DNA of 64,000 nt, from contig JAGQTU010000010.1 in the NCBI GenBank assembly GCA_020438865.1, forward strand, positions 1 to 64,000, given 5' to 3'. A program made the position numbers and the translations under genes. The DNA comes from Mycobacterium sp. GTDB lineage: Bacteria > Actinomycetota > Actinomycetes > Mycobacteriales > Mycobacteriaceae. Positions within the stretch are counted from its first letter, which is position 1; every line of letters starts with the position of its first letter. Positions 23,678-52,299 of the stretch are shown piece by piece. The notes beneath the pieces were generated by a model. That model did no database searches, was not told where the DNA came from, and was given only the letters and a program-made list of their open reading frames with translations.

Positions 23678-26600
23678 GTGACTGAACCGATGGTCACGCC
23701 GGTCGCGGTGATCGGAATGGCCTGCCGGCTGCCCGGCGGCATCAACTCGCCCGACCAGTTGTGGGAGGCGCTGCTGCGGGGCGACGACCTGGTCACCGAG
23801 ATCCCGGCCGACCGCTGGGACGCCGACGAGTACTACGACCCCGAGCGCGGCGTGCCCGGCCGGACGGTGTCGCGGTGGGGCGCGTTCATCGACGATCCCG
23901 GCGCCTTCGACGCCTCGTTCTTCGGCTTCGACGACAAGCGGGCCACCGCCATCGACCCGCAGCACCGGCTGCTGATGGAGACCTCGTGGGAGGCCATCGA
24001 GCAGGCCGGCATCGACCCGACCACGCTGGCGGGCACCCGCGCCGGGGTGTACTTCGGGATCTCCCACGACGACCACACCTCGCTGGCACTGGACGCCGGG
24101 GTGTACGGCTACACCGAGACGTCGGCCTGTATGGCCTCCGGGCGGGTGGCCTACCTGCTCGATGTGCGCGGTCCGGCGATGACCACCGACACCGCCTGCT
24201 CGTCTGGTCTGCTGGCCGTGCACATGGCGGCCCGCAGCCTGGCCACCGGGGAGAGCGACCTCGCGCTCGCCGGCGGCTGCGAGGTGATGCGCGAACCGCG
24301 CAAGAACATCTGGGCGTCCGCGCAGGGCATGCTCTCCCCCACCGGACGCTGCAAGCCGTTCGACGAGGCGGCGGACGGCTTCGTGCGTTCCGAGGGGTGC
24401 GCGGTGGTGCTGCTCAAGCGGCTGCCCGATGCGCTGCGCGACGGTGACCGGGTGCTCGCGGTAGTGCGCGGAACCGCCGCCAACTCCGATGGCCGGACCC
24501 GCAACATCGCCACGCCGTCGGTGCAGGCGCAGGTGGCGGCCTGCCGGGCGGCACTGGAGGTCGCCGGCGTGGACCCCGACACGGTCGGCGCCGTGGAAGC
24601 GCACGGCACCGGCACCCCGGTCGGTGATCCGATCGAGTTCACCAGTCTGGCAACGACATACGGTGCCAACGGCACGGTGCTGCTGGGATCGGCGAAATCC
24701 AACTTCGGCCACGCCGAGGCCGCGGCGGGCGCGCTGGGCTTCGTCAAGGCCGTCCTCGAGGTGCGGCACGGGGTCGTTCCGCCGATGGTGCACTTCCACC
24801 GGATGCCCGAGGCGCTTGCCCAGATCGCGACCGGGCTCGTTGTGCCGCAGGAGGTCACACCGTGGCCGCCGGGACACGGCGACGTGCGCCGCATCGCGGT
24901 GTCGTCCTACGGCATCTCCGGAACCAACGTGCATGCGATCGTCGAGCAGGCGCCCGCAACCCAGCCGACGCAGGCCGAGGGGGAGGGAGCACCCGGACCG
25001 AAGCTGTTCGCGCTGTCCTCGACATCCCCAGAAGGCCTCCGCGACACGGCCGGGCGCCTGGCGGAATGGATTGAGCAGCAACATGTTTCACTCGACGACC
25101 TAGGCTACACGCTGGCCCGCCGGCGGGCGCACCGGCCGGTGCGAACCGCCGTGATCGCCGACGGTGTCGCGGAACTGACCCGCGGGCTGCGGGCGGTCGC
25201 CGACGGCGACACCCCGTACCGGCCGGCGGTCGGGCAGGACGACCGCGGGCCGGTCTGGGTGTTCTCCGGGCAGGGCTCGCAGTGGGCCGCGATGGGAGCC
25301 GAACTGCTGCTTCGCGAACCGGAGTTCGCCGCCGAGATCGCCCGGATCGAACCGTTGATCGCCGACGAAGCCGGGTTCTCGGTCACCGAGGCGCTGACCG
25401 CGCCGGAGGTGGTGACCGGGATCGACCGGGTACAGCCGGCCCTGTTCGCGATGCAGGTCGCGCTGGCCGCCGCGATGCGCGCACACGGGGTGCGGCCCGG
25501 CGCGGTGATCGGCCACTCGATGGGCGAGGTGGCGGCCGCGGTGGTGGCCGGTGCGCTGTCGCTGGCGGACGGGGTGCGCGTCATTTGCCGCCGGTCGCGA
25601 CTGCTGGCCCGCATCGCCGGGGCGGGCGCGATGGCGTCGGTGGAGTTGCCGGTCGCCACCGTCCGCGAGCAACTCTCCGCCCGCGGGGTGGCCGACGTCG
25701 TGGTGTCCGTGGTGACCTCACCGGCCTCGACGGTGGTCGGCGGCGACACCGGGACGGTCCGTGATCTGGTGGCCGGCTGGGAGCGCCGCGGCGTGATGGC
25801 CCGCGAGGTGGCCGTCGATGTGGCCTCGCACTCCCCGCAGGTCGATCCGATCCTCGGCGAACTGGCCGACTCACTCGCCGGGCTGACCCCGGCCGCTCCC
25901 GCGGTGCCGTTCTATTCGGCCACCCGCGAGGATCCGCGCGCCGTGCCGGACTGCGGAGCCGTGTACTGGGTGGACAACCTGCGCCAGATGGTGCGGTTCT
26001 CCGCCGCGGTGACGGCCGCCCTGGAGGACGGCTACCGGGTGTTCGCCGAGTTGTCGCCGCATCCACTGCTGGCCCGCGCCGTCGAGCAGACCGGTCAGGC
26101 GCTCGACACCCCGGTGCAGACGGTGGCCGCCGTGCGGCGCGAACAGCCGATGCCGGACGGGCTGCTGGCCTTCCTGTCCGACCTGCACGCCGCGGGCGCC
26201 GCGGTGGACTTCTCGGTGCTGTATCCGGGTGGGCGTCTGGTGGATGTGCCGCTACCGACCTGGACACATCATCGGCTGTTGCTGGAGCGCACCGCAGGAA
26301 ACCGGGACACCGACGGCGGCCGGACCGTGGTGGTCCACCCACTGCTCGGCGAGCACGTGCGGTTGCCCGAGCAACCCGAGCGGCACGCCTGGGCCGGCGA
26401 TGTCGGCACCGCGGCGCTGCCGTGGCTCGGCGACCATCAGGTGCACGGCGTCGCGGCGATGCCGGGGGCCGGCTTCTGCGAGATGGCGCTGGCCGCCGCG
26501 CGCACCGTGCTCGGTAGGGCCGCCGAGGTCCGCGACATCCGCTTCGAGGAGATGCTGCTGCTCGACGAACGCACCGCGCTGACCGCCACGGCCGAGGTGC

Positions 26601-29600: not shown

Positions 29601-29953
29601 CACCGTTGATCGCGCGCAGCCCGTTCGCCGAGGCGCTGCGGGCCGTCGGCGGGCAGGGCGCAGACGAGACGGCCTCGGTGCGCGCCGAGTTGCGGTCGCT
29701 GCCCCCGGACGAGTGGCCGGTTCGGCTGGGGCGGCTGATCACCGAGCAGGTCGGCGTCATCCTGCGTCGCTCGGTGGACCCCGACCGACCGTTCGCCGAG
29801 CACGGCCTGGACTCGCTGGGCAACCTCGAACTGCGCACCCGCATCGAGACCGAGACCGGAATCCGGTTGACGCCCAAGGCCATCGCGGCGCACAACACCG
29901 CACGCGCTCTGGCCAGGCACCTGTCCGAGGCGCTGTCAGCCGAGTCCGGCTGA
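23678..29953 (+). CDS. mas: Mycocerosic acid synthase (iterative type I PKS)
   Basis: Mas elongates fatty acyl chains several times with methylmalonyl-CoA to give multimethyl-branched mycocerosic acids. The 2091-residue protein has KS (about 8-430, active Cys174 in DTACSSG, and [12 protein letters not shown]), then AT (528-830, Ser614 in GHSMGE, and [12 protein letters not shown]). DH follows (885-1050, [10 protein letters not shown]), then ER (1415-1720, [15 protein letters not shown]), KR (1745-1930, [11 protein letters not shown] and GAYAAANSW) and ACP (2010-2085, Ser2046 in GLDSLG). The order and length match M. tuberculosis Mas (about 2111). The start is GTG 23678, preceded by GAAGGA. 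Its stop lies 11 bp from the stop of papA5 on the other strand, the same convergence as in M. tuberculosis. No fadD28-like gene follows or precedes it here, so its starter acyl-AMP ligase must be elsewhere or be shared with FadD26. A Pks5-type Mas-like enzyme is the alternative, but the context favours Mas. Confidence 0.93.
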
Positions 29954-29964: not shown

Positions 29965-31251
29965 TCACTCCGCCAGCCAGTCGTCCTCGTCGGCGGCCTC
30001 GGCCTCGGCCTCGGTCTCGACCGAGCGCAGCAGCGACTGCACCTGCCGTAGCGGCCTTTCCGGCTCCGGTGAGTGGGACAGGTGCTCGATCTGCAGGCGG
30101 CCCTTGAGGATCGAGGTGGTGTACAGGTCCACCCCGGCGGCCGAGGCGGTGTGGAACTCGGTCCGCATCCCGTCCAGGGTCAGAGCGGGGGGCGTGCGGA
30201 TCTCGGGAACCACACCGCCCTCGGTGACCATGACCACATCGGGCAACCCGGGCGGCGTTCCGCCGTACTGCAGGTTGAAGTGCAGCAGCGACTGCTGGAT
30301 CACGCCCTCGGACAGATCGTTTCGGAACGTCTCGATGATGTCGGTGGCCAGCTCGATGATCCCGGTGCCCGGTCTGATGTGGGCGAGGTAGCCTGCGATG
30401 CCGAGCGGGTTGGTGCTCTCGGTCGCGTCCACCGGCGGCGTCAGCAGCAGCCGAAGGTCGACGGGGTACAGGTATGGGACCGGAATGTCGGGGGCGTCCC
30501 GCAGTTCCCACTCGGCCAGCAGGATGGCGGCCCCGATGACCGCGCTCAGGCTGAGCTTCGCCTCCCGGCAGAAGGTCACCAGGGCCGTGGTCTCCGACTC
30601 GGTGAGCAGGCACTGCGCGGACGGAACGAGTTCGGGCAGCGCCGGATTGCCGCCCGCGCTATTGCGATCCGAGGGCGTCAGGTCGTAGGCGTACATCACG
30701 GACAGGAACCGTTCGAGTCCCGACCGGGGGCCCTTGTGAATCCCGCGCTCCTCCAGCAGGGCCTCAAGCGGCCGCGGTGCCGGCCGGGCCGCCACCGGCT
30801 CGATGCGGCCGGTGGTCACCAGATCGGTGTACCAGGAGAACAATTCGGACAGCAGCCCGAACTGATGCTGCCCGTCAACCATGCAGTGGTGCGAGTACAG
30901 CGTGAGCTCGGAGTGCTCGTCGTCGACGAAGTGCAGCCGCAGGTTCACCAGCGCCACGGCCTGGTTGAGCCGCATCCTGGCGGTCGGCGCCGCGGGGCGG
31001 CCCGGGCCGCCGGTGACCCAGAGCCCCGGATGCTGGTAGTCGTCGGCGACGATCTGGTGCAGACCGTCCGGTCCGCGGTCGAGGTGCCCGGCAAGCACCG
31101 GATGGGCCTGCAACAGCGCTTCGAACGCCGCCGACATCGCGTCGATGTCGACCGGCCCGCTCAGCAGTACGGTGGCCCCGAAGTAGGTCTGACTCTGGGC
31201 GAACATCTCCTCGCTGCGCGCGAGCTTACGGATCACGGCGGCCGGAAACAT
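29965..31251 (-). CDS. papA5: Phthiocerol/phthiodiolone dimycocerosyl transferase PapA5
   Basis: PapA5 takes mycocerosyl chains directly from the ACP of Mas and esterifies them to the two hydroxyls of phthiocerol-type diols. The 428-residue protein has the acyltransferase/condensation fold. The catalytic motif HHCMVDG starts at His121, and His122 is the expected catalytic base. Other family stretches are FLSVMYAYDL, PYLYPVDLRLLLTPP and VIQQSLLHFN. The start MFPAAVIRKLARSEEMFAQ matches the family, and its ATG shares one base with the drrC stop (TGATG). The length is near the usual 422. The last 19 residues are unusually acidic (repeated Glu-Ala, then DEDDWLAE). It is the final gene of the long operon and is convergent with mas. 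Confidence 0.96.
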   Translation of the reverse strand: MFPAAVIRKLARSEEMFAQSQTYFGATVLLSGPVDIDAMSAAFEALLQAHPVLAGHLDRGPDGLHQIVADDYQHPGLWVTGGPGRPAAPTARMRLNQAVALVNLRLHFVDDEHSELTLYSHHCMVDGQHQFGLLSELFSWYTDLVTTGRIEPVAARPAPRPLEALLEERGIHKGPRSGLERFLSVMYAYDLTPSDRNSAGGNPALPELVPSAQCLLTESETTALVTFCREAKLSLSAVIGAAILLAEWELRDAPDIPVPYLYPVDLRLLLTPPVDATESTNPLGIAGYLAHIRPGTGIIELATDIIETFRNDLSEGVIQQSLLHFNLQYGGTPPGLPDVVMVTEGGVVPEIRTPPALTLDGMRTEFHTASAAGVDLYTTSILKGRLQIEHLSHSPEPERPLRQVQSLLRSVETEAEAEAADEDDWLAE

Positions 31252-32075
31252 CAGCGCATGCTCGCCTTTCGGTAGCCGACCACCATGGGCGTCAGGCAGA
31301 TCGCGATGATCCCGCCGGCCCACAGCAGGGTCGCGATCAGCGGCCAGCGAACGGGTCCGCCGAGGGAGAGTCCCCGCATCAGCTCGACCGCATAGGTCAT
31401 CGGCTGGTGTTCGACCACCGGCTGAATCCAGTCCGGGTACTGGTCGAGCGGCACGAATCCGGTGCAGAAGAAGATACCGAGCGTGTTGACCAGGGAGATG
31501 GCCTCCACCAGGGTCGTGGTCGCGGAGTAGAACGCGGCCGCGGTGACCAGCGTGGCGAACGCCAGGCCGAACACCACCGGAACCAGCAGCCAGGCCAGCG
31601 CCGCCGGGACACCCTGGTGGAACCGAAAGCCCAACAGCATTCCCGCACCGAGGATCACCAGCGTGGTGACGAAGATCCGCACCGCCTCGGACGCGAACCG
31701 GGCCAACAGCCCCGAGGCCCGGTGCACGGGCAACGACCAGAACCGGGCCAGCAGGCCCTCGGCGCGCTCCCGGACCAGGGCGACCGCGCCGACGGAGGAT
31801 CCGGAGATGGTGGCGACGATGGCCACCATCGGGACGCTGCCGTACAACGCGCTGTGCCCGGTGAGGTTCGAGATCTGTTTGCCCAGAACGGTGTTCACCG
31901 CCCACAGCAGCACGATCGGCACAATCAGGGTCTCGATGATGGTCGGCAGGTTGCGGCCCCACCGGATGAGCAGTCGCTTGGTCAGCACCAGGGTCTGCGG
32001 CAGCAGCACCCGAATCGAGTTCTCCCCGTAGCGAACCGGGCGGGGGGCGACGTCGGTGCGGTCGAGAACCGTCAT
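31251..32075 (-). CDS. drrC: ABC-2 type transporter permease DrrC of the DIM export system
   Basis: The 274-residue protein has six hydrophobic segments in the ABC-2 arrangement (about 42-62, 78-98, 124-150, 158-182, 190-210 and 244-265). It contains RFWSLPVHRASGLLARF in the coupling-helix region and DWIQPVVEHQPMTYAVELMR before the last helix. Both are typical of daunorubicin-resistance-type permeases. With DrrA and DrrB it forms the transporter needed for DIM to reach the cell envelope. The ATG at 32075 overlaps the drrB stop as ATGA; upstream in-frame codons lie inside drrB and are rejected as starts. Confidence 0.92.
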   Translation of the reverse strand: MTVLDRTDVAPRPVRYGENSIRVLLPQTLVLTKRLLIRWGRNLPTIIETLIVPIVLLWAVNTVLGKQISNLTGHSALYGSVPMVAIVATISGSSVGAVALVRERAEGLLARFWSLPVHRASGLLARFASEAVRIFVTTLVILGAGMLLGFRFHQGVPAALAWLLVPVVFGLAFATLVTAAAFYSATTTLVEAISLVNTLGIFFCTGFVPLDQYPDWIQPVVEHQPMTYAVELMRGLSLGGPVRWPLIATLLWAGGIIAICLTPMVVGYRKASMR

Positions 32076-32917
32076 GGCCGCCTCGCGGTGACGACCAGCG
32101 AGGTGGGCACCAGGACCGCCAGCAGGCCGGCGATCCAGGCGAACGTCGGCCACATCAGCTGCCAGGTCGCCGCGCCCGCGCCGGGCGTGGAGTCACCGGC
32201 GAGCGCCCGCAGCGCGATGACGAACTGCGAGATCGGCTGGTTGCGCACGATCGGCTGGATCCAGTCCGGAAACTGTTCGGCGGGTTGCACACCCACCGAC
32301 AGCAGCCCCAGGATCAGCTGCGGTCCCATCAGCAGCGGTGTGGTGGCCTCCGGCTTCTTGGCGGCGATGCCGATCAGGTCGCCGAGCAGCGACAGCGTCA
32401 CGCCGATCAGCAGGACCAGCAGGCAGAACGCCAGGACGAAGGGCAGCGCGCGGTGGAACCGGAATCCGATGACGTAGCCGCAGATCAGTGAGATGACCAG
32501 ACCGATGACGCAGCGGTACACGCTGCCGGTGAGGCGGGCGGCCAGCGGCACCAGCGGTGCGACGGGCATCGAGCCGAAACGGCGGGTGATGCCCTTGGAG
32601 GTGTCGGTCGCCGACCGGAACGCCCCCATGATCGAGGCGAACGAGATGCCCTGCAGCACGATCAGCGGAGTGAGGAACTGCGCGTAGCTGCTCATCGGGT
32701 TGGGGACGGCACTGATGACCCCACCCATGAACTTGTTCAGCGGGACGTAGAAGCCCGCGGTGACGATCACCGACGCGGCGATCGCGGTGACCAGTTCGCC
32801 GTTGCGCAGCATCGGCACGATCGAACGCACCGTGAGCACCCACCACTGCCGCAGCCCGGACGGCTCCGGCCTGGTCGCGGCGACTGCAGCGGCGGGGTCC
32901 GCGGTGGTTGTGGTCAC
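32072..32917 (-). CDS. drrB: ABC-2 type transporter permease DrrB of the DIM export system
   Basis: The 281-residue permease has six membrane segments. Between helices it carries the ABC-2 coupling pattern GITRRFGSMPVAPLVPLAAR, and a second conserved turn, DWIQPIVRNQPISQFVIALR, lies near the C-terminus. The same pair of motifs appears in DrrC, so the two are paralogous halves of a heterodimeric channel. The start is a GTG that overlaps the drrA stop as GTGA. A Pro/Ala-rich N-terminal 20 residues are cytosolic. The role follows from the conserved drrA-drrB-drrC-papA5 order and from sequence similarity. Confidence 0.92.
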   Translation of the reverse strand: MTTTTADPAAAVAATRPEPSGLRQWWVLTVRSIVPMLRNGELVTAIAASVIVTAGFYVPLNKFMGGVISAVPNPMSSYAQFLTPLIVLQGISFASIMGAFRSATDTSKGITRRFGSMPVAPLVPLAARLTGSVYRCVIGLVISLICGYVIGFRFHRALPFVLAFCLLVLLIGVTLSLLGDLIGIAAKKPEATTPLLMGPQLILGLLSVGVQPAEQFPDWIQPIVRNQPISQFVIALRALAGDSTPGAGAATWQLMWPTFAWIAGLLAVLVPTSLVVTARRP

Positions 32918-33867
32918 GACGCCGATTCCGCGGTGAGCGAGAGGAACACGTCGTCCAGCGACGGGCGGCGCAGCGCGATGTCGGCCAGCTCGATCTTGGC
33001 CGCGCCGAGCCGGCCCATCACCTCGATGAGGGTGTTGGCGCCGTCCGGTGCCGGCAGCGCGATCCGGTCGGACTGCGATGTCACCGTCTCCCTGGCCTTC
33101 TCGGGCAGCAGCGTGCCGAGCACCTCGACCATGGCTGGCAGGTCGCGGACATCCCGCGGCACGATCTCGCAGTAGCTGCCGCCGGTGCGCTCCTTGAGTT
33201 CGTCGGCGGTGCCCTCGGCGATGATCGTCCCGTGGTTGATGACGATGATCCGGTCGCTCAGCGCGTCAGCTTCCTCGAGGTACTGCGTGGTCAGCAGGGT
33301 GGCGATGCCCGCGGTCTTGAACCGGCTGACCAGGTCCCAAATGCCTTGGCGGCTACGGGGATCGAGGCCGGTGGTCGGTTCGTCGAGGAACACCACCTCG
33401 GGGCGGACCACCAGGCCGCAGCCGATGTCGATGCGGCGGCGCATGCCCCCGGAGTAGGTGCCGACCCGGCGGTCGGCGGCGTCGGCGAGGTCGAACTCCG
33501 CGATCAGTTCGGTGGCGCGCGCGCGGGCGGCCGACTTGCTCAGCCCCTGCAGGCGGCCGAACATCACCAGGTTCTCGTGCCCGGTGAGCATGTCGTCGAC
33601 GGCGACCTGCTGACCGGTGAGCATGATCGACCGGCGGACACCGGCCGGGTCGGCCACCACATCGTGCCCGGCCACCAGGGCGCGACCCCGGTCCGGGCGG
33701 GTCAGCGTCGACAGGATGTCCACCGTGGTGGTCTTGCCCGCGCCGTTCGGCCCGAGCAGGCCGATCACCTCCCCGCGGCCGACCTCGAAGCTGATACCGC
33801 GCAGTGCCTGAACCGCACCGAACGACTTGCCCAGTCCGTCGACGACGACGCTCTTGTCGTAGCTCAC
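32914..33867 (-). CDS. drrA: ABC transporter ATP-binding protein DrrA
   Basis: The 317-residue ATPase energises the DrrBC permease. It has Walker A GPNGAGKTT at about residues 39-47, the ABC signature YSGGMRRR, Walker B VVFLDEPTTGLDP and a switch histidine replaced by Gln in LLTTQYLEE. Gln at that position is common in DrrA-type exporters. The C-terminal 80 residues form the extra domain found in the drug-resistance subfamily and end RRPSLDDVFLSLTAESAS. The GTG at 33867 overlaps the ppsE stop by GTGA; an open frame further upstream lies inside ppsE. The chromosomal position and sequence match M. tuberculosis DrrA. Confidence 0.95.
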   Translation of the reverse strand: MSYDKSVVVDGLGKSFGAVQALRGISFEVGRGEVIGLLGPNGAGKTTTVDILSTLTRPDRGRALVAGHDVVADPAGVRRSIMLTGQQVAVDDMLTGHENLVMFGRLQGLSKSAARARATELIAEFDLADAADRRVGTYSGGMRRRIDIGCGLVVRPEVVFLDEPTTGLDPRSRQGIWDLVSRFKTAGIATLLTTQYLEEADALSDRIIVINHGTIIAEGTADELKERTGGSYCEIVPRDVRDLPAMVEVLGTLLPEKARETVTSQSDRIALPAPDGANTLIEVMGRLGAAKIELADIALRRPSLDDVFLSLTAESAS

Positions 33868-36800
33868 GACAGATCCACCAGGGCGAAGCTGTCCAGGTCG
33901 TCCTCGACCGGGGCGGCGTTGGCCGTCAACTCGGCCAGCGCGGCCGGGAACCGGGCCATCAGCGCCGCCACCGTGCCGCGGTCCATCCGGCGGGTGTCGG
34001 ACCACCAATCCAGATGCAGCACGCCGCCATCCCGGTACGCCCGGAGTTCCAGCGCGTGCCCGAAGGCGGGCAGCGTGTCGCGGGCCGGGGCCGCGGGATC
34101 CATGTCGAACTGCACCGGTCCGTCCAGCTTGGGCAGCGGCGGAATCGTGCCGAGGTAGGAGAAGAACACCTCCGGGTTCGGCTGGGTGGCGAGCCTGCGG
34201 GCGGTCGGCGCGTAGACGTATTTCAGCAGTCCGTACCCGATCCCGTAGTGCGGCACCGCCGCGAGCGCGTCGTGGACCCCGGACAGCGCCTCCGCCGCGT
34301 CCTGCCCGGTCGCATTGCAGCGCAACGCAATCGGGTAGATAGTGGTGAACCAGCCCACCGTGCGGTGCAGATCGACGTCAGGTTTGAGCACCAGCCTGCC
34401 GTGGCCGGCCAGGTCCACGGTGGCCACCCCGTCGCCGCGGGTGTGGGCGAGGGTGCGGCCCAGCGCCGCGAGCAGGATCTCGTCGGCGGGCAACCGCAAC
34501 GTGCGCTGCGCCTCGTCCAGTTCGGCCGTCGCCTCGGCGGTCAACGTCGACGGTAGCCGGAGCAGGTCGCCGGCAGACGGTGGTTCGGTCACGTCGTGAT
34601 CGGCCACCCGCACCGTCCCGGCACCGGCGGTGTCGAGCCAGAGCTCCCGGGTGTCCAGCACCGCGGGGTGGGTGGCCAGCGCGGCGCACCGCTGCGACCA
34701 CTCCCGCCAGCTGGTGCCCACCGGCTGCAACTCGATGTCCTGGCCGGCCGACCGCTGCGTGAAGGCGGTGAAGATGTCGGTCATCAGGATCTCCCGGGAG
34801 GCATTGTCACCGGCCAGGTGGTGCACCGTCAGCACCAGGTGGCCCGGAGCTCCCTCGGCGCCGCGAACATACGTTGCGGCCAGCGGCGCGGCGAAGGTGT
34901 CCTCGGCGGTTCTCATCTCCCCGGCGATCGCCTCGATCGCCTCGCGCTCCGCGGCACTGCCCGCCGCCACATCCGCAGGCAGCGACCGGGTGGTCAGGGC
35001 GGTGAACTCGGCGGGCTCGGCGATCTCCTGTTCCCAGGTGCCCGCCCGCTCGACGATCCGCAGCCGCAGCGCCTCGTGCTGGTCGGTCACGGCGGTCAGC
35101 ACCGCTCGGACGTCCTCCTCGGTCAGCTGCGCGCCGAGCCGAAGGACCAACGGGACACACCAGTAACCGCTTTCGCGCAGGCCGTTCTCCAGGAAACCGG
35201 TGATGTTGGGCGGCACCGGCGGGTGCTCGGCGTCCGCCACCGGGCCGCCCCCGGCGCCGGCCAGGCCGACGCCCGCGTAGCGGGCGGCGAGGGCGGCGGT
35301 CAGCGCGGCGATGCTCTGGTTCTCGAACAGGTCCTGGGGCTCCAGCTCCAGGCCCTCCTTGGCCATGTTGGTCGCGATGCCGATGGCGTTCACCGAATCA
35401 CCGCCGAGTTCGAAGAAGTTGGCATTGCGGTCGATGCTTTCGATGCCCAGCGCCTGCGACCAGATCCGGTGCAGGACCGCCTCGATCTGCTGCTCCCGGG
35501 TGGCGGGGGCGGCCGCGGCCGCCTCCTCCGCAGGGACGGCGGTGCCCGCGCCGGCATCGACGCCGGTGTCGGCCAGGCCGGTTCCGCGGCGGGGCTGCAC
35601 CCAATGCATCTGGCGGGCAAAGGGATAGCCGGGCAGCGAGATCCGCCGAGCGTCGGCGCCTCGCAGCAGCGACCAGTCCGGCTCGATACCGGCCGACCAC
35701 AGCTGACCGAGGCCGAGCAGGAACGCGTCGCGGTCGTCGCGGTCCTGAAGCTGATGGCGCATCAGGCGCACGGCGCGGTGTTCGTCGGACCACCGCGGCT
35801 GCCGCACCGCCGAGGCGGTCAGCGCGGCGCCGGGGCCGACCTCCACCAGCACCCGGTTGCGCTCGGCGAGCACGGTGTCGAGTTCGTCGGAGAACCGGAC
35901 GGTGGCCCTGATCTGCCGCGCCCACCGGGCCGGGTCGGTGGCCTCCTCGTCGGACATCCAGGTGCCGGTGGTGTTCGACAGCAGCGGGCGCCGCGGCACC
36001 CGCAGCGTGAGCCCGGCCAGCACCTCGGTGAACTCGGCCAGCACGGGATCCATCGAGCTGGAATGGAATCCGTGCGAGGTGCGCATCCGCCGGGCCGACA
36101 GGCCGGCCTCGGCGAGCCGATCCTCCAGCTCGGTGATCAGGTCGTCGGGGCCGGACACCACGCAGTTGCCCGGGTCGTTGACCGCGGCGAGATCGATTCC
36201 CGCGGTGAGCAGTTCGCCGATCGCCTCCGGACCGGCGGCCACTGCGAGCATGGCACCGCGCGGCGCGGATTGCATGAGTCGCGCGCGCGCCGCGACAGCC
36301 TTGATCGCGGTGGGCAGGTCGAACACCCCGGCACAGGTCGCCGCGACGTACTCGCCGATGCTGTGCCCGGCGAAGGCCGCCGCCCGCACGCCGTAGGACT
36401 CGGTCAGTTCGGCGAGCGCGTATTCGACCGCGAACAGGGCGGGCTGGGCGTGGTCGGTGCGGGCCAGATCGGCGCCCGGGCCGCCGAAAAGCTCGGTGCG
36501 CAGGTCGATCCCGAGCTCGTCACGGAACCCGTCGGCGCAGGTGTCGAACGCAGTCCGGAACACGGGTTCGGACTCGTAGAGCCCGCGGGCCATGCCCGGG
36601 TGCTGCGCACCTTGCCCCGGGAAGAGGAACACCACGCGGGAATCGGAGTCCGGCGGTGTGGACCCGATCGCCTCCGTCACGACGACGTTGTCGTGCTCGG
36701 TTGCGGTCAGCACCGCGGCGGCCTGTTCGGGGTCGGCGGCCACCGCCGCCAGCCGGAATTTCTCCGGCCGCCTGCCCTCCAGCGTGAACGCCACGTCCGC

Positions 36801-38258
36801 CAGGTCGACCTCGTCGGGTCCGGCCAGCTCGGCGGCCAGCTCGGAGCGCAGCCGGGTGAGGCCCTCGGCGGTCTGCGCCGACAGCAGCAGTACCTGCGGA
36901 CCGGTGGGCACCTGGCGGGCCGGGACCGGCGGTGCCTCTTCGACGACGACATGGGCGTTGGTACCGCCGACGCCGAAGGAGCTGACCCCGGCGCGCCGCA
37001 CGGTGTCGGTGTCCCACGGGCGGTACTCGGTCTGTACCACGAACGGGCTCTGATCGAGGTGCAGTTCGGGGTTGGGGCTGGTGAAGTGCAGGGTGCCCGG
37101 GATGGCGCCGTGCTTGAGGCACAAAATGGACTTGATCAGCCCGGCGATACCCGACGCCACCTCGAGGTGACCGATGTTCGACTTGACCGACCCCAGCACG
37201 CAGGGTTTCTGGCGAGCGGATTCGGCGAGGTCGAAAGCCGTTCGCAGCGCGTCGATTTCGATCGGATCACCGAGCGGCGTTCCGGTGCCGTGGGTTTCGA
37301 TGTAGTCGATACTCGACGGGTCGACGTCGGCGACGGCGTGCGCCTCGGCGATCACGTCGGCCTGGGCGGCGGCGTTGGGGGCGGAGAAGCCGATCTTGCG
37401 TGACCCGTCGTTGTTGACCGCCGACCCCCGGATGATGGCGTGGATGCGGTCGCCGTCGTCCAGGGCGGCCTGCAACGGTTTGAGGACCACGATGCCGACA
37501 CCGCTGCCGAAGACGGTGCCGTCGGCGCGCACGTCGAACGGGCGGCAGTGACCGGCCGCCGAGACGATGGATCCCGGTTCGTACCAGTAGCCGACGTCGT
37601 GCGGGATGCGGATCGACACACCGCCGGCCAGGGCCATGTCGCATTCGCCGTTCAGCAGGCTCTGGCAGGCCAGGTGCACCGCCACCAACGAAGACGAGCA
37701 CGCCGTCTGTACGGCGATGCTCGGGCCGCGCAGGTTGAACTCGTAGGACACCCGGGTGGCCAGGAAGTCCTTGTCGTTCTGGAAGGACAGGCCGATCAGG
37801 TCGATGTTGGTGCCCTGCCCCATGATGGTGTCCAGGTTGCGGTGGGTGAGCAGGTTGTAGCCGAGATAGCCGCTGGCCGAACTGGATCCGTACACCCCGA
37901 TCGAGCCGTCGAAGCGGGCCGGGTCGCAGCCGGCGTCCTCCAGCGCGTGCCAGGCGCACTGCAGGAACAGCCGGTGCTGGGGATCGGTCATCCGGGCGGC
38001 CTGCGGGGAGAACCCGAAGAAGTCGGCGTCGAACTCCTCGACACCGCGCAGGAGCGGGGCGCGCCGGACGTAGGCCGGGTTGGCCAGGACCTCGTCGTCG
38101 ATCCCGGCGGCGCGCAGCGTCTCGGGTGTCAACGTGGTGATGGACTCCGCGCCGTTGCGCAGGTTGTCCCAGTATTCGGAGACGGAGTCGGCGCCGGGGA
38201 AGCGGCCGGCCATGCCGACGACCGCGACCGCGTTGGGTGCCGGGGCGGTGCCGTTCAT
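33864..38258 (-). CDS. ppsE: Phthiocerol synthesis type I PKS PpsE (KS-AT-ACP-C)
   Basis: PpsE carries out the last extension of the phthiocerol chain and has no reductive domains, so it leaves a beta-keto product. The 1464 residues comprise KS (about 10-430, active Cys187 in QTACSSS), AT (545-840, Ser633 in GHSIGE), ACP (935-1005, [11 protein letters not shown]) and a C-terminal condensation-like domain (1035-1460). In that domain the HHxxxDG motif reads HHLAGDN. It is thought to take part in chain release with TesA. The AT shows [11 protein letters not shown] and SHGFH, both of the malonyl type, unlike the other modules. The ATG at 38258 overlaps the tesA stop as ATGA and has AGGA eight bases upstream; a GTG at 38264 is the alternative. 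The length is near the family's 1488. Confidence 0.96.
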
Positions 38259-38995
38259 ACGCACTGTCCTCGCTTTCGCCGCTGGACGGCTTCGGAGAAT
38301 CTGCTCTCGATATCTGCCGCCACATCGCTGAGATGGTCGGTGAAGTAGAAGTGCCGGCCGTCGAAGACCCGCATGCCGAACTCGGCGGTGGTGTGCCGCG
38401 CCCAGCCCGACACGGCGTCCACGGGCGCCAGCCGGTCGTCGTCACCGACCGAGGCGTAGACGGGGCAGGACACCGTGGCGTCGGGTTCGCATTTGTAGCC
38501 GGCGATGGCCTCGTAGAACCCGCGCAGCGTCGGCAGCAGCATGTCGACGAACTCCTTGTTCTCCAGCACCTTCGGGTCGGTGCCGCTGAGCTCCACCAGG
38601 TAGTCGACGAGTTGGTTGTCGGACAGGTCGCGGAAGTACTCGGTGCGCATCCGGCTGGGCGCCGCGCTCGATGACACGAACAGCGCCGCGGCCGGGTTGC
38701 CCGCCGCCTCCAGCCTGCGGGCCACCTCGAACGCGACCAGCGCGCCCATGCTGTGGCCGAACAGCGCCACCGGGGCCCCGTCGTCGGGGGCGGCGGAGAT
38801 CATCCGGTAGCTGTTGGCGGCCAGCGAGTCGATGGTCGGTACCGCCGGGGCGGCGCCGGGCTGCATGCCCGGATACTGCACCGCAACACGTTTGACGTCG
38901 GTGGTGAACGACTTGGCGAACGGGACGTAGAAGCTCGCCGTCCCGCCGGCGTGCGGGAAGATGTACAGCCGCGGTGTGCTCGACATTCCGATCAC
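38255..38995 (-). CDS. tesA: Type II thioesterase TesA
   Basis: TesA hydrolyses or edits acyl chains on PpsE and is required for DIM production in M. tuberculosis. The product is about 246 residues with an alpha/beta-hydrolase fold. It has the oxyanion segment LYIFPHAGGTASFY, the conserved KRVAVQYPGM, the nucleophile Ser in LFGHSMGALVAFEVARRL and the catalytic His in RHFYFTDHLSDVAADIE. Each segment closely resembles M. tuberculosis TesA. The GTG at 38995 overlaps the upstream stop as GTGA and has AAGG nearby; the ATG at 38986 is the alternative, giving MSSTPRLYIFPHAGG. In M. tuberculosis tesA lies upstream of fadD26, outside the pps run, whereas here it is between ppsD and ppsE, next to its likely partner PpsE. 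Confidence 0.93.
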   Translation of the reverse strand: MIGMSSTPRLYIFPHAGGTASFYVPFAKSFTTDVKRVAVQYPGMQPGAAPAVPTIDSLAANSYRMISAAPDDGAPVALFGHSMGALVAFEVARRLEAAGNPAAALFVSSSAAPSRMRTEYFRDLSDNQLVDYLVELSGTDPKVLENKEFVDMLLPTLRGFYEAIAGYKCEPDATVSCPVYASVGDDDRLAPVDAVSGWARHTTAEFGMRVFDGRHFYFTDHLSDVAADIESRFSEAVQRRKRGQCV

Positions 38996-39855
38996 CGCAC
39001 CTTGGCCGGGGTGTTGTCCAGGCTGCCGAACACCTTGCCCGCGACCCGGAAGGTGAGGCGCACGACCGCGTCGACCACCCGGTCGGGCAGCACGCGGCGG
39101 GCGTAGATGACCGGTTTGGCGCCCAGGCCGACCGCGTAGCGGGTGCGCGGCCGCCGGGCGGTGACCGCCTTGGCGATCGCCTTGGCGACCACGTCCGGCG
39201 ACGAGGCGAAGCGGCCGCCGGAGAGCACCTTCTCGACGGTGGCGGCCTGGACCGCGTAGGCCCCCATCGTCGAGTTGGCGACCAGGTTGCCGGCGGCGAC
39301 GCCGTGCCATTCGGTGTCGATGGCCCCGGGTTCGACGACGACGACGTGGATGCCGAACGGCGCGACCTCCAACCGCAGGGTGTCACTGAGACCCTCGATC
39401 GCGAATTTGGTTGCGTGATACCAGCTGCCGAGCGGCACGTGCACCCGGCCGCCGATCGAGGAGATGTTGATGATGTAGCCGCTGCGCTGCGCACGCATGT
39501 GCGGCAGCACCAACTGGGTGAGCCGCGCCGGCCCGAACAGGTTCACGTCGACCTGGCGGCGGGCGTCGGCCATCGTGACGTCCTCGAACGCGCCCATCGC
39601 GCCGTAGCCCGCGTTGTTCACCAGCACGTCGATCCGCCCGCACTCGGCGACGACCCGATCCACCAGCGCGGTCAGCGCGGCCTCGTCGGTGACATCCACC
39701 CGCACCGGCCGGACCCCGGCATCGGCGAGCGGCGCCATCAGTTCCAGCCGGCGCGCGGCGGCGTACACGGTGTAGCCCATGGCGTTCAGGCGGCGGGCGG
39801 TCGCGGCGCCGATGCCCGAGGACGCGCCGGTGACGATGGCGATCTTGCCGGTCAT
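38992..39855 (-). CDS. Short-chain dehydrogenase/reductase inserted in the pps operon
   Basis: The 287-residue classical SDR has the cofactor motif TGASSGIG at 9-16, NNAGYGAMG at about 80-88 and a catalytic triad Ser133, Tyr146 and Lys150 (WYHATKFAIEG). Arg35-Arg36 after strand 2 suggests NADPH preference. The C-terminal 60 residues are basic and rich in Arg and Val (FRVAGKVFGSLDNTPAKVR), as in SDRs acting on lipid substrates. No equivalent lies in the M. tuberculosis pps run. There the phthiodiolone keto group is reduced by the F420-dependent Rv2951c, so this enzyme is a reasonable candidate for that step or for another carbonyl reduction on the phthiocerol chain. It is translationally coupled on both sides (ATGA with the previous gene, GTGA with tesA). 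Confidence 0.88.
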   Translation of the reverse strand: MTGKIAIVTGASSGIGAATARRLNAMGYTVYAAARRLELMAPLADAGVRPVRVDVTDEAALTALVDRVVAECGRIDVLVNNAGYGAMGAFEDVTMADARRQVDVNLFGPARLTQLVLPHMRAQRSGYIINISSIGGRVHVPLGSWYHATKFAIEGLSDTLRLEVAPFGIHVVVVEPGAIDTEWHGVAAGNLVANSTMGAYAVQAATVEKVLSGGRFASSPDVVAKAIAKAVTARRPRTRYAVGLGAKPVIYARRVLPDRVVDAVVRLTFRVAGKVFGSLDNTPAKVR

Positions 39856-40436
39856 GACGCGCTCTCCATGGGTGGGTCCAGGGGGAAGTCGAGCGGGACG
39901 TCGAGGATGGAGATCACGGTGGCCAGCGAGTCGTATTGCGCTGCGAGCATGCAGAATTCGATCAGCTGCCGCCGGGACAGGTAGGCGGCCAGGGTGTCCC
40001 AGGTGGCGGTGCTGACGGCCCGGGCGGTGACGAACTCGTCGGTGGCCCGCAGCAGCGCCTGCTGGCGGGCCGAGAGTCCGTCGGTGTCCGGCCAGGCGAA
40101 GATCTTGGCCTGCAGGTCGGCGTGGACCCGGTAGCGCTCGGCGATGCGCCGGTGCTGCTGCAACTCGTATTCGCAGTTGCGCAGGTGCGCCACTCGCAGG
40201 ATCACCAGCTCGGTTTCGGGCCGCGGCAGCTTGCCCCAATACAGCACGGCGCCGTAGAGGTACCAGAACCGGAAGAGCCGCTTGTGCTGTCCGAGTGCGG
40301 TGAACAGGTGCATCCGGGGCGCCTTGATCACCCGGGCGGCGAGCTTGGTGAATATCCAGTTGATCAGGCCGAGTTCGCGCAGGCTCGCGCCGGGGATGCG
40401 CCCTTCGTCGAGGGTTCGGCCGGGTTCGATGGTCAT
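39852..40436 (-). CDS. Carboxymuconolactone decarboxylase-family (AhpD-like) protein in the pps operon
   Basis: The 194-residue helical protein carries the CMD/AhpD-fold signature ETELVILRVAHLRNCEYELQ, with Glu76, Cys88 and His95 in the pattern C-x6-H. Only one cysteine is present in the motif, so the CxxC of true AhpD peroxidases is missing and a peroxidase or disulfide role is unlikely. Family members include gamma-carboxymuconolactone decarboxylase. This makes it tempting to propose removal of the terminal carboxyl from the beta-keto acid released from PpsE, a step required in phthiocerol assembly, but nothing in the sequence proves it. A membrane- or lipid-binding role is the alternative; the N-terminal half has LINWIFTKLAARVIK and RFWYLYGAVLYW. 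It overlaps ppsD and the SDR gene by ATGA on both sides. Confidence 0.83.
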   Translation of the reverse strand: MTIEPGRTLDEGRIPGASLRELGLINWIFTKLAARVIKAPRMHLFTALGQHKRLFRFWYLYGAVLYWGKLPRPETELVILRVAHLRNCEYELQQHRRIAERYRVHADLQAKIFAWPDTDGLSARQQALLRATDEFVTARAVSTATWDTLAAYLSRRQLIEFCMLAAQYDSLATVISILDVPLDFPLDPPMESAS

Positions 40437-43400
40437 ACCCGTTGTCCTCTCCGGCGCGCGGCGGCCTGCTGGCGCGCGGCGGCGCGTTGTTGCGCGCGGT
40501 CGCGGACGCCGTCGGCGCGTGGGTTGTCCGCGTCGGCGATGCCGAGCTGGCCGATCAGGTCGGTGGTGACGTCCCGCAGGGACGCGCCCTGCAGCAGCAT
40601 CGCCACCGGCGGCTCGACGCCGAAGTCGGCGCGCGCGGTGTTGCGGATCCGCACCGCCATCAGAGAATCCATGCCCAGTTCGAGCAGCGGGCGGCTGGGG
40701 TCGAGCACCGACGGGTCGTGATAGCCCATCACCGCGGCGATCCGCGCGCACAGCCGGTCGGTGACGATGCGGTGCGCCTCGCCGGCCTCGAGTTCGCGCA
40801 GCGCGTCGGGTCCGGCCCAGTCGCCGGCGTCGTCGGCCATGTCCAGTTCCTCGACCACCCGGGTGAAGTAACCGAGCTGGCGGATCTCCGGGAACGCGAC
40901 CAGGGCCCGGTCGGCCCGCAGTCGCGCCACACCGGTGATGGCGCGGTCGGTGGCCAGCAACGCCTCGAGCGCCTCGAGTCCCTCTGCGGGGGTGATCGGG
41001 TCGAGCACGCTGGCGGTAAGCGCCTGCGCCACACCGACTTCCGACCACGGACCCCAGTTGATCCCGGTGGCGGGCAGGCCGGCGGCGTGGCGGCAGCGGA
41101 TCAGCGCATCCAGCCAGGCGCTGGCGCACGCATAGGCCAGCTGTCCGGGCGAACCCAACAGGGAAGCGGCCGAGGAGAATCCGACCCACCAGTCCAGCTG
41201 CAGCTCAGCGGTGGCCTGGTGCAGTCGCAGCGCGCCGGTGGCCTTCGGCGCCCACACCCGGTGCAGGCTCTCCTTGGTCATGGCGACCAACAGGTTGTCG
41301 TCGATGGCCGCCGCGCCGTGTACCACCCCGCGCAGGTCGAGTCCGCTCTGCCGGGCGGCGGCGACCAGCCGCTCGGCCACACCGGGTTCGGCGAGATCGC
41401 CCGCCACGATCTCGATCTCGGCCCGGCCGGCCAGTTCGGCTACGGTCTTCTGCTGGTCCTCGGACGGTTCGCGACGGCCGTTGAGCACCACCCGGCCCGC
41501 CCCGTTGTCGACCAGCCAGCGCGCGACGACCAGGCCCAGACCGCCCAGGCCGCCGGTGACGATGTAGGCGGCCCCGGTGCGTACGACCGGCTGCTCGCCG
41601 GGCGCGGGCAGCTGTGCCCGGGACAGCCGTTGGACGTGGCGCCGGCCCGATCGCCAGGCGATGACGTCGTCGGAGTCGGTGCACTGCAGTTCGGTGGCCA
41701 GTTCGGTCAGCGCCTGCTCGCCGCGGTCCAGGTCGACCAGGGTGGCCCGCAGGTCGGGGTGCTCGTAGGCCAGCACCCGGATCAGGCCGGTGAGCGCACC
41801 GGCGGCCGGATCGCCGGCCTCGTCCCCCACCCCGTCACCCGCCTGGTCACCGGCGACCACCAGCCCGCCGCGGGTGACGAGCCACAGCCGGGGTGCGCGA
41901 CCGTGCCAGCCGCCGAGGACGGCCCGTACCGTCGAGGCGATCGACCACACCGCGTCCCTGGACTGTCCGACGCAGGCCTCGAGGTCGGTCGAGCCCGCCC
42001 CGACGAAGACGACCACTCCGGCCGGCGGGCGTTCGGCGTCGGCACAGGTGTCGGCGAACGCCGCCCGCACCGCGGCCTCGTCGGTGACGTCGGCGGTGAC
42101 GACCCGCCGCTGCGGAGTGCGCCACGACCCGGCGAACCCGTCGGCCGCGGCGCGGGCGTCGGGATGGTCGGCCAGCAGCAGCCAGCTGCCCGGGGTGGTC
42201 TCGGCGGCGGGCTGCGCGGGGCTCTGCACCCATGCGGTGTCGAAGATCTTCTGCTCCAGCGGCAACGGGAAGGCCCGCCGCTCGACCCGGCGCACGTAGA
42301 TTCCGGTGATCTCGGCGGTGGGGGTGCCCGCCTCGTCGGTGAGCACGACGTTGCCCAGCTTGCCCGCACCGCCCTCGTCGAGATCCTTGACCTCGGCGTG
42401 GCACCGGGCGCGGCGGCCGACGTCGCCGAAGATGCGGATCTCCTCGAACGACACCGGTAGGTAGCTCACCTCGGCGGCCTCGGCGACCGTGCGCTCGGGC
42501 ATCGCCGCGGCCATGGTCTGCAGCGCGGCGTCCAGCATCACCGGGTGGATGTGGAAGCCGGCATGCCGCACCGCCTCGTCGGGCAGGCTGATCTCGGTGT
42601 CCGCCGAGCCGTCCGCCTGCCGGAGCACCCGGACCAGCGCCGCGAACGCGGGGCCGTGGTGCTGGCCGGTCTGGCGCAGGGTGGCGTAGAAGTCGGACGG
42701 CGACACCTCGGTGCCGGTGCCCGCCGTGCGTGGCGGTGGGGGTTGATCGCCCTGGCGCTCTTGGACTTTGGCGACCGCATGCCGGGTCCAGGCTTCGGTC
42801 GCCGAGCGGGAGAAGATCTCCACCCGCGCCGAGCCGTCGGCGCTGCGGGACAGCTGGGTGGTGATCGGTGTGTGGGCGTCCAGCGGCAGCATCTGCTCGA
42901 CCTCGACGCCGGCCACCGACACTTTCGCGGCGGGCAGGCCGAACGCCTCGCCGCCCGCGGCCAGCGCGATCTCGGCGAACCCGGCGGCGGGCAGGATGGC
43001 CTGGCCGCCTACCCGGTGGTCGGCCAGCCACGGGCAGACGTCGGTGCCGACGTCGCCCTGCCAGACGTGGTCCCGCCCGGACGGCAGTTCGATGTACGCA
43101 CCCAGCAGCGGATGGGTGGCGGTCAGTTCGACCACGGCCGAACGGTCGGCGACCCAGAAGTCGCGATGCCGCCACGGCGTGGGCGGCAGATCCGGCAGTT
43201 GGGCGCCCGCCACCGCGGGCGGCAGGACACCAACCGCGGCGAGCTGGCTGTGGAAGAACAGGGTTTCGTCGCCGTCCCGGTTCATCGTCGAGGCGATCAG
43301 CACATCGTCGCGGGTGTCGGCGATGGCGTGGGTGAGCAGCGGGTGCGGGCTCACCTCGACGAAGGCGGCTCCACGTGCGGCGGCTGCGGCCTCGGTGACG

Positions 43401-45807
43401 GCCTCGGTGAAGCGGACCGGGTTGCGCAGGTTGGCCACCCAGTGCTCGGCGTCGAATCGCGATGCGGGACCGGCCTCGTCGACGGTGGTGATCAGCGGGA
43501 TGCTCGGGGTCGTCGGCGCCAGCCCGGCCAGGGCGGTGCGCAGTTCGGGCAGGATCGGGTCGATGATCGGGTGGTGCGAGGCGACGTCGACCTCGACCCG
43601 GCGGGCCAGCCGGTTCTGGGCGGCCACCTGGGCCACCAGTAGGTCGACCTGGTCGGGCGGTCCGGCGATCACGGTCTGGCGCGGGGAGGCATGTACGGCG
43701 ACGGTGACCTCGGGATGGTCGGCGATCAGCGCCTCGGCGGCCTGGGCATCGAGCTCGACCAGGGCCATCGCGCCCTGCCCGGACAGCCGGGCCATCAGCC
43801 GGGACCGGGTGGCGATCACCTGCAGGCCCTCGGCGACGCTCAGGGCCCCGGCCACCACGGCCGCGGTGACCTCGCCCATCGAATGACCGATCACCGCAAC
43901 GGGTTCCACGCCGTAGGAGCGCCACAATGCGGTCAACGCGAGCTGCATGCCGACCAGCACCGGCTGGATACGGTCGATGCCGACCACCGGCTGCCCGCCG
44001 GCCAGCACCTCGCGCAGCGAGAATCCGGCCTGCGCAACGAAATCCGGCTCGATCTCGGCGACGGCGGCGGCGAAGGCGGGCTCCTCGTCCAGCAGCTGCC
44101 TGCCCATCCCCGCCCACTGCGAGCCCTGCCCGGAGTAGACGAACACCGCGCCCGAACCGCGCGGCCGGTCGTGTGGGGCGACCTGGCCGGAGGCGATGGC
44201 CCGCAGACCCGTGACGGCCTCGGCGTGATCGCGCGCGCAGACGACGGCGAGTTTGGGGTGCCGGGCGCGATGGTGGTTCAGGGCGTCGGCGATGTCCGCC
44301 AATTGCGCTGCGGCGCCCGCATTCTCCAGCCAGTCGGCCAGCGCACCGGCCCAGGCGGCCACCCGTTCCGGGGTCTTGCCGGACACCGTCAGGATGTGCA
44401 CGCCCGGTACCGCGGTGCGGCCGGCCCCGGTGGGGGCCTGTTCGAGGATCACGTGCGCGTTGGTGCCGCCGAGGCCGAAGGATGACACCGCGGCGCGGCG
44501 CGGACCCGAGCCGGCCGGATACGGCATGGTCTCGGTCGGCACGAAGAACCGGGTCGGGGTCGGGTCGATGGCCTGGTTCCACCGGGTGAAGTGCAGGTTG
44601 CGCGGGACGGTGCCGTGGCGCAGCACCAGGACGGCCTTGATGAAACCGGCGACCCCGGCGGCGGCCTCCAGGTGGCCGAGGTTGGTCTTCACCGATCCCA
44701 GCGCACAGGGTGCCCCGCCGCGGCCGTAGGTGCTTGCCAGGGACTCGAATTCGATCGGGTCGCCCAGCACGGTGCCGGTGCCGTGGGCCTCGATGTAGTT
44801 CACCGTCTCCGGCGCGACCCCGCCGATCCGCAGCGCGTCGGTGATCACGTCGCGCTGGGCCAGCACGTTCGGAGCGGTCAGCCCGTTCGACCGGCCGTCC
44901 TGATTGACCGCCGAGCCCCGCACCACCGCGAGCACCCGGTCGCCGTCGCGCACCGCGTCGGCGAGCCGCTTGAGCACCACCACACCGCAGCCCTCGCCGC
45001 GGACGAAACCGTCGGCGGCGGCGTCGAATGTCTTGCACCGGCCCTGCGGGGACAGCGCCGACCACTTGGACAGCGCGATCCCGGTGAACGGCGACAGGCT
45101 CAGCTGCACCCCGCCGGCCAGCGCGAGGTCGCTCTCCCGCAGCCGCAGGCTCTGGCAGGCCAGGTGGATCGACACCAGCGAGGACGAGCACGCGGTGTCC
45201 ACCGCGACCGCCGGACCGCGCAGCCCGAGCAGGTAGGCGATCCGGCCCACCGCGGTGCTGTGCGGGTTGCCGGTGCTCACGTAGGCGTCGATCTCGGCCC
45301 GGCGTTCGATGTTGACGATGGTGTAGTCCCACGACGACATGCCCATCAGCACGCCGGTCCTGGTGCCGCTCAGCTCCTCCGGCGCGATGCCCGCGTGTTC
45401 GAGAGCCTCCCAAGCCACTTCGAGCAGCATCCGCTGCTGGGGGTCCATCGCCTCGGCCTCGCGCGGGGTGATGCCGAAGAAGTCGGCGTCGAAGCCCTCG
45501 ACATCGGAGACGAATCCGCCCCACTTCGTGGTCATTCGGCCCGGCGCCTGCGGATCCGGGTCGTAGAACGCATCGGCGTCCCAGCGGTCCCCGGGCACCT
45601 CGCTGATCGCGTCGACGCCGTCGAGCAGCAGCCGCCACAGGCTCTGCGGACCGTCGACCTCGCCGGGGAACCGGCAGCCGATGCCGACGACGGCGATCGG
45701 TTCGGCCACCGAGTCGACCGGAAACACGGTTCCGGCTCGAATCAGCTCCTTGGCCAGCACCTCTCGCGCTTGCGGCGACATCTGGGCGGCACGGTCGGCG
45801 AGGCTCG

Positions 45808-45811
<4 letters not shown>
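40433..45811 (-). CDS. ppsD: Phthiocerol synthesis type I PKS PpsD (KS-AT-DH-KR-ACP)
   Basis: PpsD extends the chain with a methylmalonyl unit in the known pathway. The 1792-residue protein has KS (about 38-455, active Cys208 in DTACSSS), AT (555-850, Ser644 in GHSMGE, and VASHHPIIDPIL) and DH (900-1075, HRVGGQAILP). KR (about 1415-1600, [15 protein letters not shown], active Tyr in QLAYACASAW) and ACP (about 1690-1760, GMDSLM) follow. There is no enoylreductase, so full reduction would need a trans-acting ER, as Rv2953 does in M. tuberculosis; none is visible in this window. The first residues (MTSLADRAAQMSP) and the C-terminal Arg/Ala-rich tail (RDRAQQRAAARQQAAARRR) match the M. tuberculosis protein as I recall it, although that one is about 1827 residues. 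The GTG at 45811 overlaps the ppsC stop. Confidence 0.96.

Positions 45812-52295
<6,484 letters not shown>

Positions 52296-52299
<4 letters not shown>

What the first reader, a model, noticed from the sequence alone, without database searches (positions are those of the whole stretch)
38992..40436. CMD-fold protein and SDR embedded between ppsD and ppsE: candidate missing finishing enzymes of the diol
In the known pathway the beta-keto product of PpsE loses its carboxyl and the resulting ketone is reduced by the F420-dependent Rv2951c. The decarboxylation catalyst is, to my knowledge, unassigned. Here a carboxymuconolactone-decarboxylase-family protein (Cys88-x6-His95, no CxxC) and a classical SDR (Ser133, Tyr146, Lys150) are translationally coupled to ppsD, tesA and ppsE. 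They could be a decarboxylase and an NADPH ketoreductase acting on the released chain, an alternative to the F420 route. This pair is the strongest candidate for undescribed biochemistry in the window.
Basis: partly seen in the sequence, partly recalled or inferred. Interest (0 to 1): 0.82.

Follow-up and report, generated by a model that had tools for sequence, protein, structure and literature searches.

The report
Finishing enzymes inside mycobacterial wax locus
An environmental mycobacterium carries two extra enzyme genes inside its surface-wax (PDIM-type) assembly operon, and several relatives carry similar genes in or beside theirs in other arrangements, which points to an undescribed way of finishing the wax alcohol although neither reaction has been shown.

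Summary
In detail: on the minus strand ppsD-CMD-SDR-tesA-ppsE form one coupled operon. None of 46 other pps junctions examined has this insertion. The CMD protein is a paralogue of a near-universal mycobacterial gene beside a ramB-like regulator (homologues in 347 of 401 genomes), and this genome keeps that core copy too. Copies of the gene recur in pps clusters: the 18 best matches of a cluster-CMD profile in 386 genus genomes include 13 not used to build it, 12 of them beside mas, papA5 or a cluster SDR. A close relative holds, between the same flanks, a shorter cluster with its own CMD and an SDR of another subfamily. Pathway membership is thus well supported; the chemistry is not. The fold is AhpD-like, CxxC is replaced by (C/S)xxE, Cys88 varies, and no PcaC model matched. 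Best reading: a finishing set (TesA release, CMD acting on the beta-keto acid, NADPH ketone reduction by the SDR). No Rv2951c-type gene above 36% identity was found in this 91%-complete genome, but its anticorrelation with CMD is only suggestive.

The parts
39852..40436 (-). CMD-superfamily protein, 194 aa, E76/R86/Y90/E91/H95 conserved, (C/S)xxE in place of CxxC
38992..39855 (-). Classical SDR, 287 aa, TGASSGIG, NNAG, Ser133-Tyr146-Lys150, AARR at 33-36 (NADPH preference inferred)
   Evidence: NCBIfam PRK06182 391.6 bits, cut-off 305
38255..38986 (-). tesA, type II thioesterase, GHSMG at 77-81
   Evidence: best solved relative 6fvj 'Probable thioesterase TesA' 3.1e-63
33864..38258 (-). ppsE (KS-AT-ACP-condensation domain)
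40433..45814 (-). ppsD (KS-AT-DH-KR-ACP)
45808..52299 (-). ppsC (KS-AT-DH-ER-KR-ACP)
52296..56789 (-). ppsB (KS-AT-KR-ACP)
56786..61504 (-). ppsA (KS-AT-KR with two PP-binding stretches)
   Evidence: start taken at the overlap with fadD26
61498..63237 (-). fadD26-type acyl-AMP ligase
   Evidence: AMP-binding 2.6e-60
31251..33870 (-). drrA, drrB, drrC transporter genes
29965..31254 (-). papA5-type acyltransferase
   Evidence: PapA_C 3.7e-51; below the cut-off of the NCBIfam PapA5 models
23624..29953 (+). mas-type iterative PKS (KS-AT-DH-ER-KR-ACP)
   Evidence: best matches 61-72% in related clusters
21215..23527 (-). Molybdopterin oxidoreductase that flanks the cluster; in G635, G498 and G621 the cluster CMD lies directly beside its orthologue

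Best explanation
CMD and SDR are finishing enzymes of a PDIM-type wax in environmental mycobacteria, made together with TesA and PpsE. Inferred order: TesA hydrolyses the beta-keto chain off PpsE; CMD acts on the released beta-keto acid, most likely by acid-base decarboxylation with E76/E91/H95 or by otherwise steering it; the SDR reduces the resulting ketone with NADPH, in place of the F420-dependent phthiodiolone ketoreductase. Shown: operon coupling, recurrence of CMD copies and SDRs in pps clusters, no detectable Rv2951c-type gene in this incomplete genome. Inferred: every chemical step. My odds: pathway membership 0.85, SDR as ketoreductase 0.5, CMD as decarboxylase 0.3.
For: Start/stop overlaps across ppsD-CMD-SDR and tesA-ppsE. 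The CMD is an extra copy: the genome keeps a core copy on C326 beside RamB and Lpd genes. A profile of 5 cluster CMDs (A2) was scanned over 386 genus genomes. Of the 18 best matches 5 are its own rows; of the other 13, 12 lie within 10 kb of mas, papA5 or SDR_A, and the 13th (G621) lies at a contig end beside genes that flank the cluster elsewhere; seven of the next eight matches were fetched and all seven are core copies beside RamB. 17 of the 18 form a clade (98/91) and the window copy joins core copies (98/88), which suggests a second recruitment. SDR_A lies on the CMD contig in 11 of the 18, in 4 directly upstream on the same strand. Relative G635 carries a different cluster with CMD and SDR_A between flanks 92-96% identical in DNA. 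None of the 39 LLM-family matches lies on contig C11 and the best Rv2951c-type match in the genome is 36%.
Against: No activity evidence. Sequence and fold are nearer to AhpD/peroxidase-related proteins than to a known decarboxylase. Beta-keto acids lose CO2 without an enzyme (recalled), so a decarboxylase is not required. The profile contained the window copy and shows no clear score gap between cluster and core CMDs (298 against 292 bits), so it is the neighbourhoods that separate them. CMD occurs in genomes where no SDR_A was found (G498, G675, G621, G716) and SDR_A occurs without linked CMD (G346, G405). The window SDR's nearest relatives (57-68%) are not in a pps cluster within 3.3 to 20 kb. 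A single origin of all cluster CMDs is not rejected (AU p 0.17). The genome is a 91%-complete bin, so a missing gene is weak evidence.
Confidence: 0.5

Rival explanations
1. The CMD is not an enzyme of the released chain but an AhpD-derived accessory protein (scaffold, redox or acyl-CoA-related helper) brought in from the ramB neighbourhood; only the SDR, or neither, does chemistry on the diol.
For: AhpD-like fold and sequence; ancestral location beside a short-chain acyl-CoA regulator (ScfRs domain); CMD in 4 genomes where no SDR_A was found.
Against: E76, R86, Y90, E91, Q93 and H95 are invariant in all 60 other rows of the alignment, which suggests retained chemistry; CxxC is lost, so not a dithiol peroxidase.
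Confidence: 0.3
2. CMD and SDR act on chains still bound to PpsD or PpsE (a trans-acting reductase and partner), or on the finished diester, as described for the F420 ketoreductase, rather than on the free acid.
For: Position between ppsD and ppsE; PMC12802322 (passages) describes ketone reduction after PapA5 acylation in M. tuberculosis.
Against: tesA lies in the same block, which suggests work on a released chain; in relatives the CMD and SDR_A genes sit beside papA5 and mas, not beside the PKS junction.
Confidence: 0.3
3. Chance insertion or assembly artefact in a metagenome bin.
For: None of 46 other junctions shows this order; the genome has 366 contigs and 4.2% contamination.
Against: Exact ATGA overlaps at three junctions, intact frames, GC in the range 0.67-0.73, and recurrence of cluster CMDs elsewhere.
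Confidence: 0.04

Closest known systems
PDIM/DIM locus of M. tuberculosis (tesA, fadD26, ppsA-E, drrABC, papA5, mas, Rv2951c; gene order recalled, in part from passages of PMC13098245)
   Same: ppsA-E domain order, fadD26, drrABC, papA5, mas and tesA are all present
   Different: tesA lies between SDR and ppsE; CMD and SDR added; no Rv2951c-type orthologue found (best 36%)
Short pps clusters of relatives, e.g. G635, G428, G680
   Same: Same chromosomal site (accD4-pks13-fadD32 on one side where seen; molyb, HTH67 or emb genes on the other) and a CMD
   Different: One PKS gene between fadD26 and ppsE, tesA beside fadD26, SDR_A of another subfamily, CMD after mas
Core CMD beside a RamB/ScfR-type regulator gene (label Rv0464c recalled)
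   Same: Same protein family, about 51-64% identity, same polar core
   Different: Genomic place and partners; function of the core copy unknown to me
AhpD, and Bmp8 debrominase (PDB 6ohi, 6ohj; entry titles only)
   Different: The second Cys of CxxC is E91 here; no dithiol mechanism expected

Membership tests
CMD superfamily (PF02627) | Profile score over the curated cut-off | tested here: met
   43.7 bits, cut-off 23
CMD superfamily (PF02627) | All-helical AhpD/CMD fold | tested here: met
AhpD dithiol peroxidase | CxxC active-site pair | tested here: not met
   C88-x-x-E91; E91 invariant, C88 often Ser
Peroxidase-related TIGR01926 | Score over cut-off | tested here: not met
   29.6 bits, cut-off 81.8
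4-carboxymuconolactone decarboxylase (PcaC) | Match to a PcaC model in NCBIfam | tested here: not met
   Only TIGR01926 and TIGR00778 at E up to 0.01
4-carboxymuconolactone decarboxylase (PcaC) | Decarboxylase activity | not testable with these tools
   Needs purified protein
Classical SDR | TGxxxGxG, NNAG and Ser-Tyr-Lys | tested here: met
   Positions 9, 80 and 133/146/150; PRK06182 over cut-off
F420-dependent phthiodiolone ketoreductase (Rv2951c) | Orthologue in the genome | tested here: inconclusive
   Best match 36% (C110), against 58% or more in 12 of 37 pps genomes, the query's own included; bin 91% complete; the reference was picked by its place near a fadD gene, not by comparison with the Rv2951c sequence
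DIM-type locus | ppsA-E domain order plus fadD26, tesA, drrABC, papA5, mas | tested here: met
DIM-type locus | Lipid product | not testable with these tools
   Needs lipid mass spectrometry

The most novel reading that the evidence does not exclude
Environmental mycobacteria have an F420-independent finishing route for PDIM-type waxes in which an AhpD-fold protein, taken into pps clusters at least twice from a core gene, is a dedicated beta-keto-acid decarboxylase paired with interchangeable SDR ketoreductases. In short two-module clusters, where only one hydroxyl would come from a KR, the SDR would supply the second hydroxyl that PapA5 needs.
Probability: 0.22. Interest if true: 0.85.

Novelty: new variant of a known kind. 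Interest (0 to 1): 0.63.

Why it matters
The decarboxylation after PpsE has no assigned catalyst known to me, and the ketone reduction is described as F420-dependent (PMC8498797 and PMC12802322, passages). A naturally recurring CMD and SDR in pps clusters gives named genes and a cultured carrier (M. komossense, L035) on which both steps can be tested. It also shows PDIM-type clusters in many environmental genomes, apparently exchanged as cassettes.

Tried and rejected
SDR_B (beside CMD in M. komossense and G462) was first taken as a cluster SDR, then rejected: it also borders the cluster in G346 and M. tusciae, where no CMD is linked, and it goes with an fgd1-type gene (NCBIfam F420_G6P_DH) at that insertion site, so it looks like a flanking gene. 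The idea that Cys88 is catalytic was rejected. A strict rule 'CMD/SDR replaces Rv2951c' was not adopted: of the 37 pps genomes, 5 have a linked CMD and 8 have the LLM gene on the ppsE contig within 40 kb, with no overlap, but a chance non-overlap is not unlikely (about 0.14, worked by hand for the 27 of the window's genus or reached through named loci); G215 has an unlinked 65% LLM; and 19 showed none of the three in the stretches examined. Linkage of CMD and SDR_A was judged only within the stretches fetched; for the ten genomes of other genera the place of their CMD copy was not looked up. Adjacency of the window-type SDR to a different PF02627 protein in L122 was left as an observation. One origin or two for the cluster CMDs is unresolved. 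My working labels mmpL_a and mmpL_b and in the notes were wrong: Pfam shows Emb-type arabinosyltransferases. Literature: searches listed no paper linking a CMD protein to PDIM biosynthesis; the one paper with both words is a proteomics study (passages). PMC7261415 and PMC1238737 (searched for terms) did not help. The library lacks most subscription journals.

Limits: the match list is capped, but it is sorted and its first 26 rows were enough for the choice made. G512 and G628 have the CMD beside a fadD26-like/ppsA-like pair on a different contig from their papA5-SDR_A-mas. No junction was visible in L061, L116, L196, L197, L198, L212 and L224 (for G567 and G511 it was seen in L220 and L225), and G675 gave no ppsE match. 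Nine of 50 CMD rows (duplicates or cut genes: L001, L012, L042, L043, L085, L104, L108, L117, L120) were dropped before the trees.

Full report
The observation. CMD (40436-39852) and SDR (39855-38992) lie on the minus strand between ppsD and tesA-ppsE, with ATGA overlaps at ppsD/CMD, CMD/SDR and tesA/ppsE and 5 bp between SDR and tesA. Pfam and NCBIfam confirm both families, the thioesterase, PpsE, DrrABC and PapA5. PpsA to PpsD have the usual domain order. In the relatives where that side was seen, tesA lies beside fadD26 or ahead of the first PKS gene; here the only tesA match in the window plus the 14 kb beyond it is the one at 38986-38255.

Is the arrangement shared? A search with the PpsE C-terminus found 31 of 401 GTDB-family genomes with a strong match (E 1.9e-68 or better), own genome included and 10 of them in two other genera. 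I fetched the 30 other loci. With later loci, the junction upstream of ppsE is visible in 46 of the 53 loci given to the recount; in all 46 the gap between the preceding PKS gene and ppsE is 183 bp or less, so no gene of the kind fits there. The exact arrangement is therefore known only from this window.

What the CMD is. A named-genome scan gave 40 loci. In 36 the CMD lies within 3 kb of a RamB-like ScfR regulator gene; L042, cut at its contig start, has the lpd side; L035, L038 and L040 have neither. In 347 of 401 family genomes there is a homologue at E 1e-20 or better. Of the 52 genomes of the window's genus in that set only G000 (own) and G215 have two, and both extra copies are in a pps region. 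The own genome's core copy (C326, L086) lies beside RamB and Lpd genes. The pps copy is thus an extra paralogue.

Cluster-type CMDs recur. A profile of five cluster copies (A2, window included) was scanned over 386 genus genomes. The 18 best matches have E 3.4e-89 or better. Five are the profile's own rows. Of the other 13, 12 lie within 10 kb of mas, papA5 or SDR_A. G621 lies at a contig end beside molyb-HTH67-STPK-emb genes, which flank the cluster elsewhere. Scores alone do not separate the groups (298 against 292 bits), but seven of the next eight matches were fetched and all seven are beside RamB. In the tree of 61 rows the 17 non-window cluster CMDs are one clade (98/91), with two core copies as its sister. 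The window copy groups with core copies of five other genomes (98/88), which would mean a second, separate recruitment. Holding all 18 together is not rejected (AU p 0.17), so one origin remains possible.

The SDRs. The window SDR is a PRK06182-type protein. Matches at E 1e-55 or better are in 21 of 396 genus genomes, own included. In the stretches fetched around the 20 others (3.3 to 20 kb) no pps cluster was seen, though G285's copy (43%) lies about 12 kb from its ppsE, and G635, G756, G429 and G564 have a ppsE elsewhere. Other pps clusters carry SDR_A, a different subfamily (30-34% to the window SDR), after papA5 and a WS/DGAT gene. SDR_A lies on the CMD contig in 11 of the 18 genomes, and directly upstream of the CMD on the same strand in G567, G511, G582 and G743. 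No close SDR_A was found in G498, G621, G675 and G716 (best 45-48%, three of them incomplete genomes), and SDR_A occurs without linked CMD in G346 and G405. The own genome has a 63% SDR_A relative elsewhere, beside relA- and secF-type genes.

Cassette exchange. The contig beyond the window (L087) holds accD4-type, pks13, fadD32 and culp6 genes. On the other side of the cluster come molyb, HTH67, STPK, Emb-type arabinosyltransferases and dprE2-dprE1. G635 has the same flanks (96.1% over 1510 bp, 91.6% over 297 bp up to window 63704, 94.6% over 1296 bp from window 23430). Between them lies a short cluster whose matches to the window are only 68-76% identical, with tesA first, one KS-AT-KR-ACP gene between fadD26 and ppsE, SDR_A after papA5 and CMD after mas. 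So two near relatives hold different clusters at one site, each with a CMD and an SDR.

The F420 route. I took as reference an LLM protein found by its place near a fadD gene in clusters of M. tuberculosis-like order (L171, L174, L102; 73-86% to each other); no NCBIfam model was over its cut-off for it. Matches of 58% or more occur in 12 of 37 pps genomes, 8 of them on the ppsE contig within 40 kb; the window genome's best is 36%, and none of its 39 PF00296 matches is on C11. This fits a different ketoreductase here but does not prove it.

Known or new. The papers of which I saw passages describe F420-dependent reduction of phthiodiolone (PMC12802322 and PMC8498797); the second lists it for a few, mainly pathogenic, species. 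PMC5366915 (passages) surveys DIM genes in nontuberculous species by reference to M. tuberculosis genes. None of the searches showed a link of CMD proteins to this pathway. I file this as a new variant of the DIM-type locus.

Noticed in passing
window 23430-63704 with L216 and L193: Whole pps clusters seem to be exchanged between near relatives at one chromosomal site between emb/dprE and accD4-pks13-fadD32 genes.
   Followed up: partly
L052-L061: ppsD-ppsE-drrABC-papA5 sets occur in nine genomes of two other genera of the GTDB family, and in part (from ppsE on, contig start) in a tenth.
   Followed up: no
L193:838-2238, and WS_DGAT matches: A WS/DGAT acyltransferase gene lies between papA5 and SDR_A in most short clusters and is absent from the window cluster.
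   Followed up: no
L122:9663-11244: A window-type SDR (59%) lies 86 bp from a different PF02627 protein of 220 aa.
   Followed up: no
L062-L065, L069: In five genomes no drrABC match lies between ppsE and papA5, and a second ppsD-like gene precedes ppsD.
   Followed up: no
L190:4887-6560, L140:13284-14957: A 557-aa protein with an SDR_A-like part (about 50%) lies near the pps locus of G312 and G285.
   Followed up: no
window 2691-16568: DprE1, DprE2 and three Emb-type arabinosyltransferase frames lie on the plus strand at the left of the window; the 1667-aa frame 4948-9951 carries about 630 further residues ahead of its Emb domains.
   Followed up: partly
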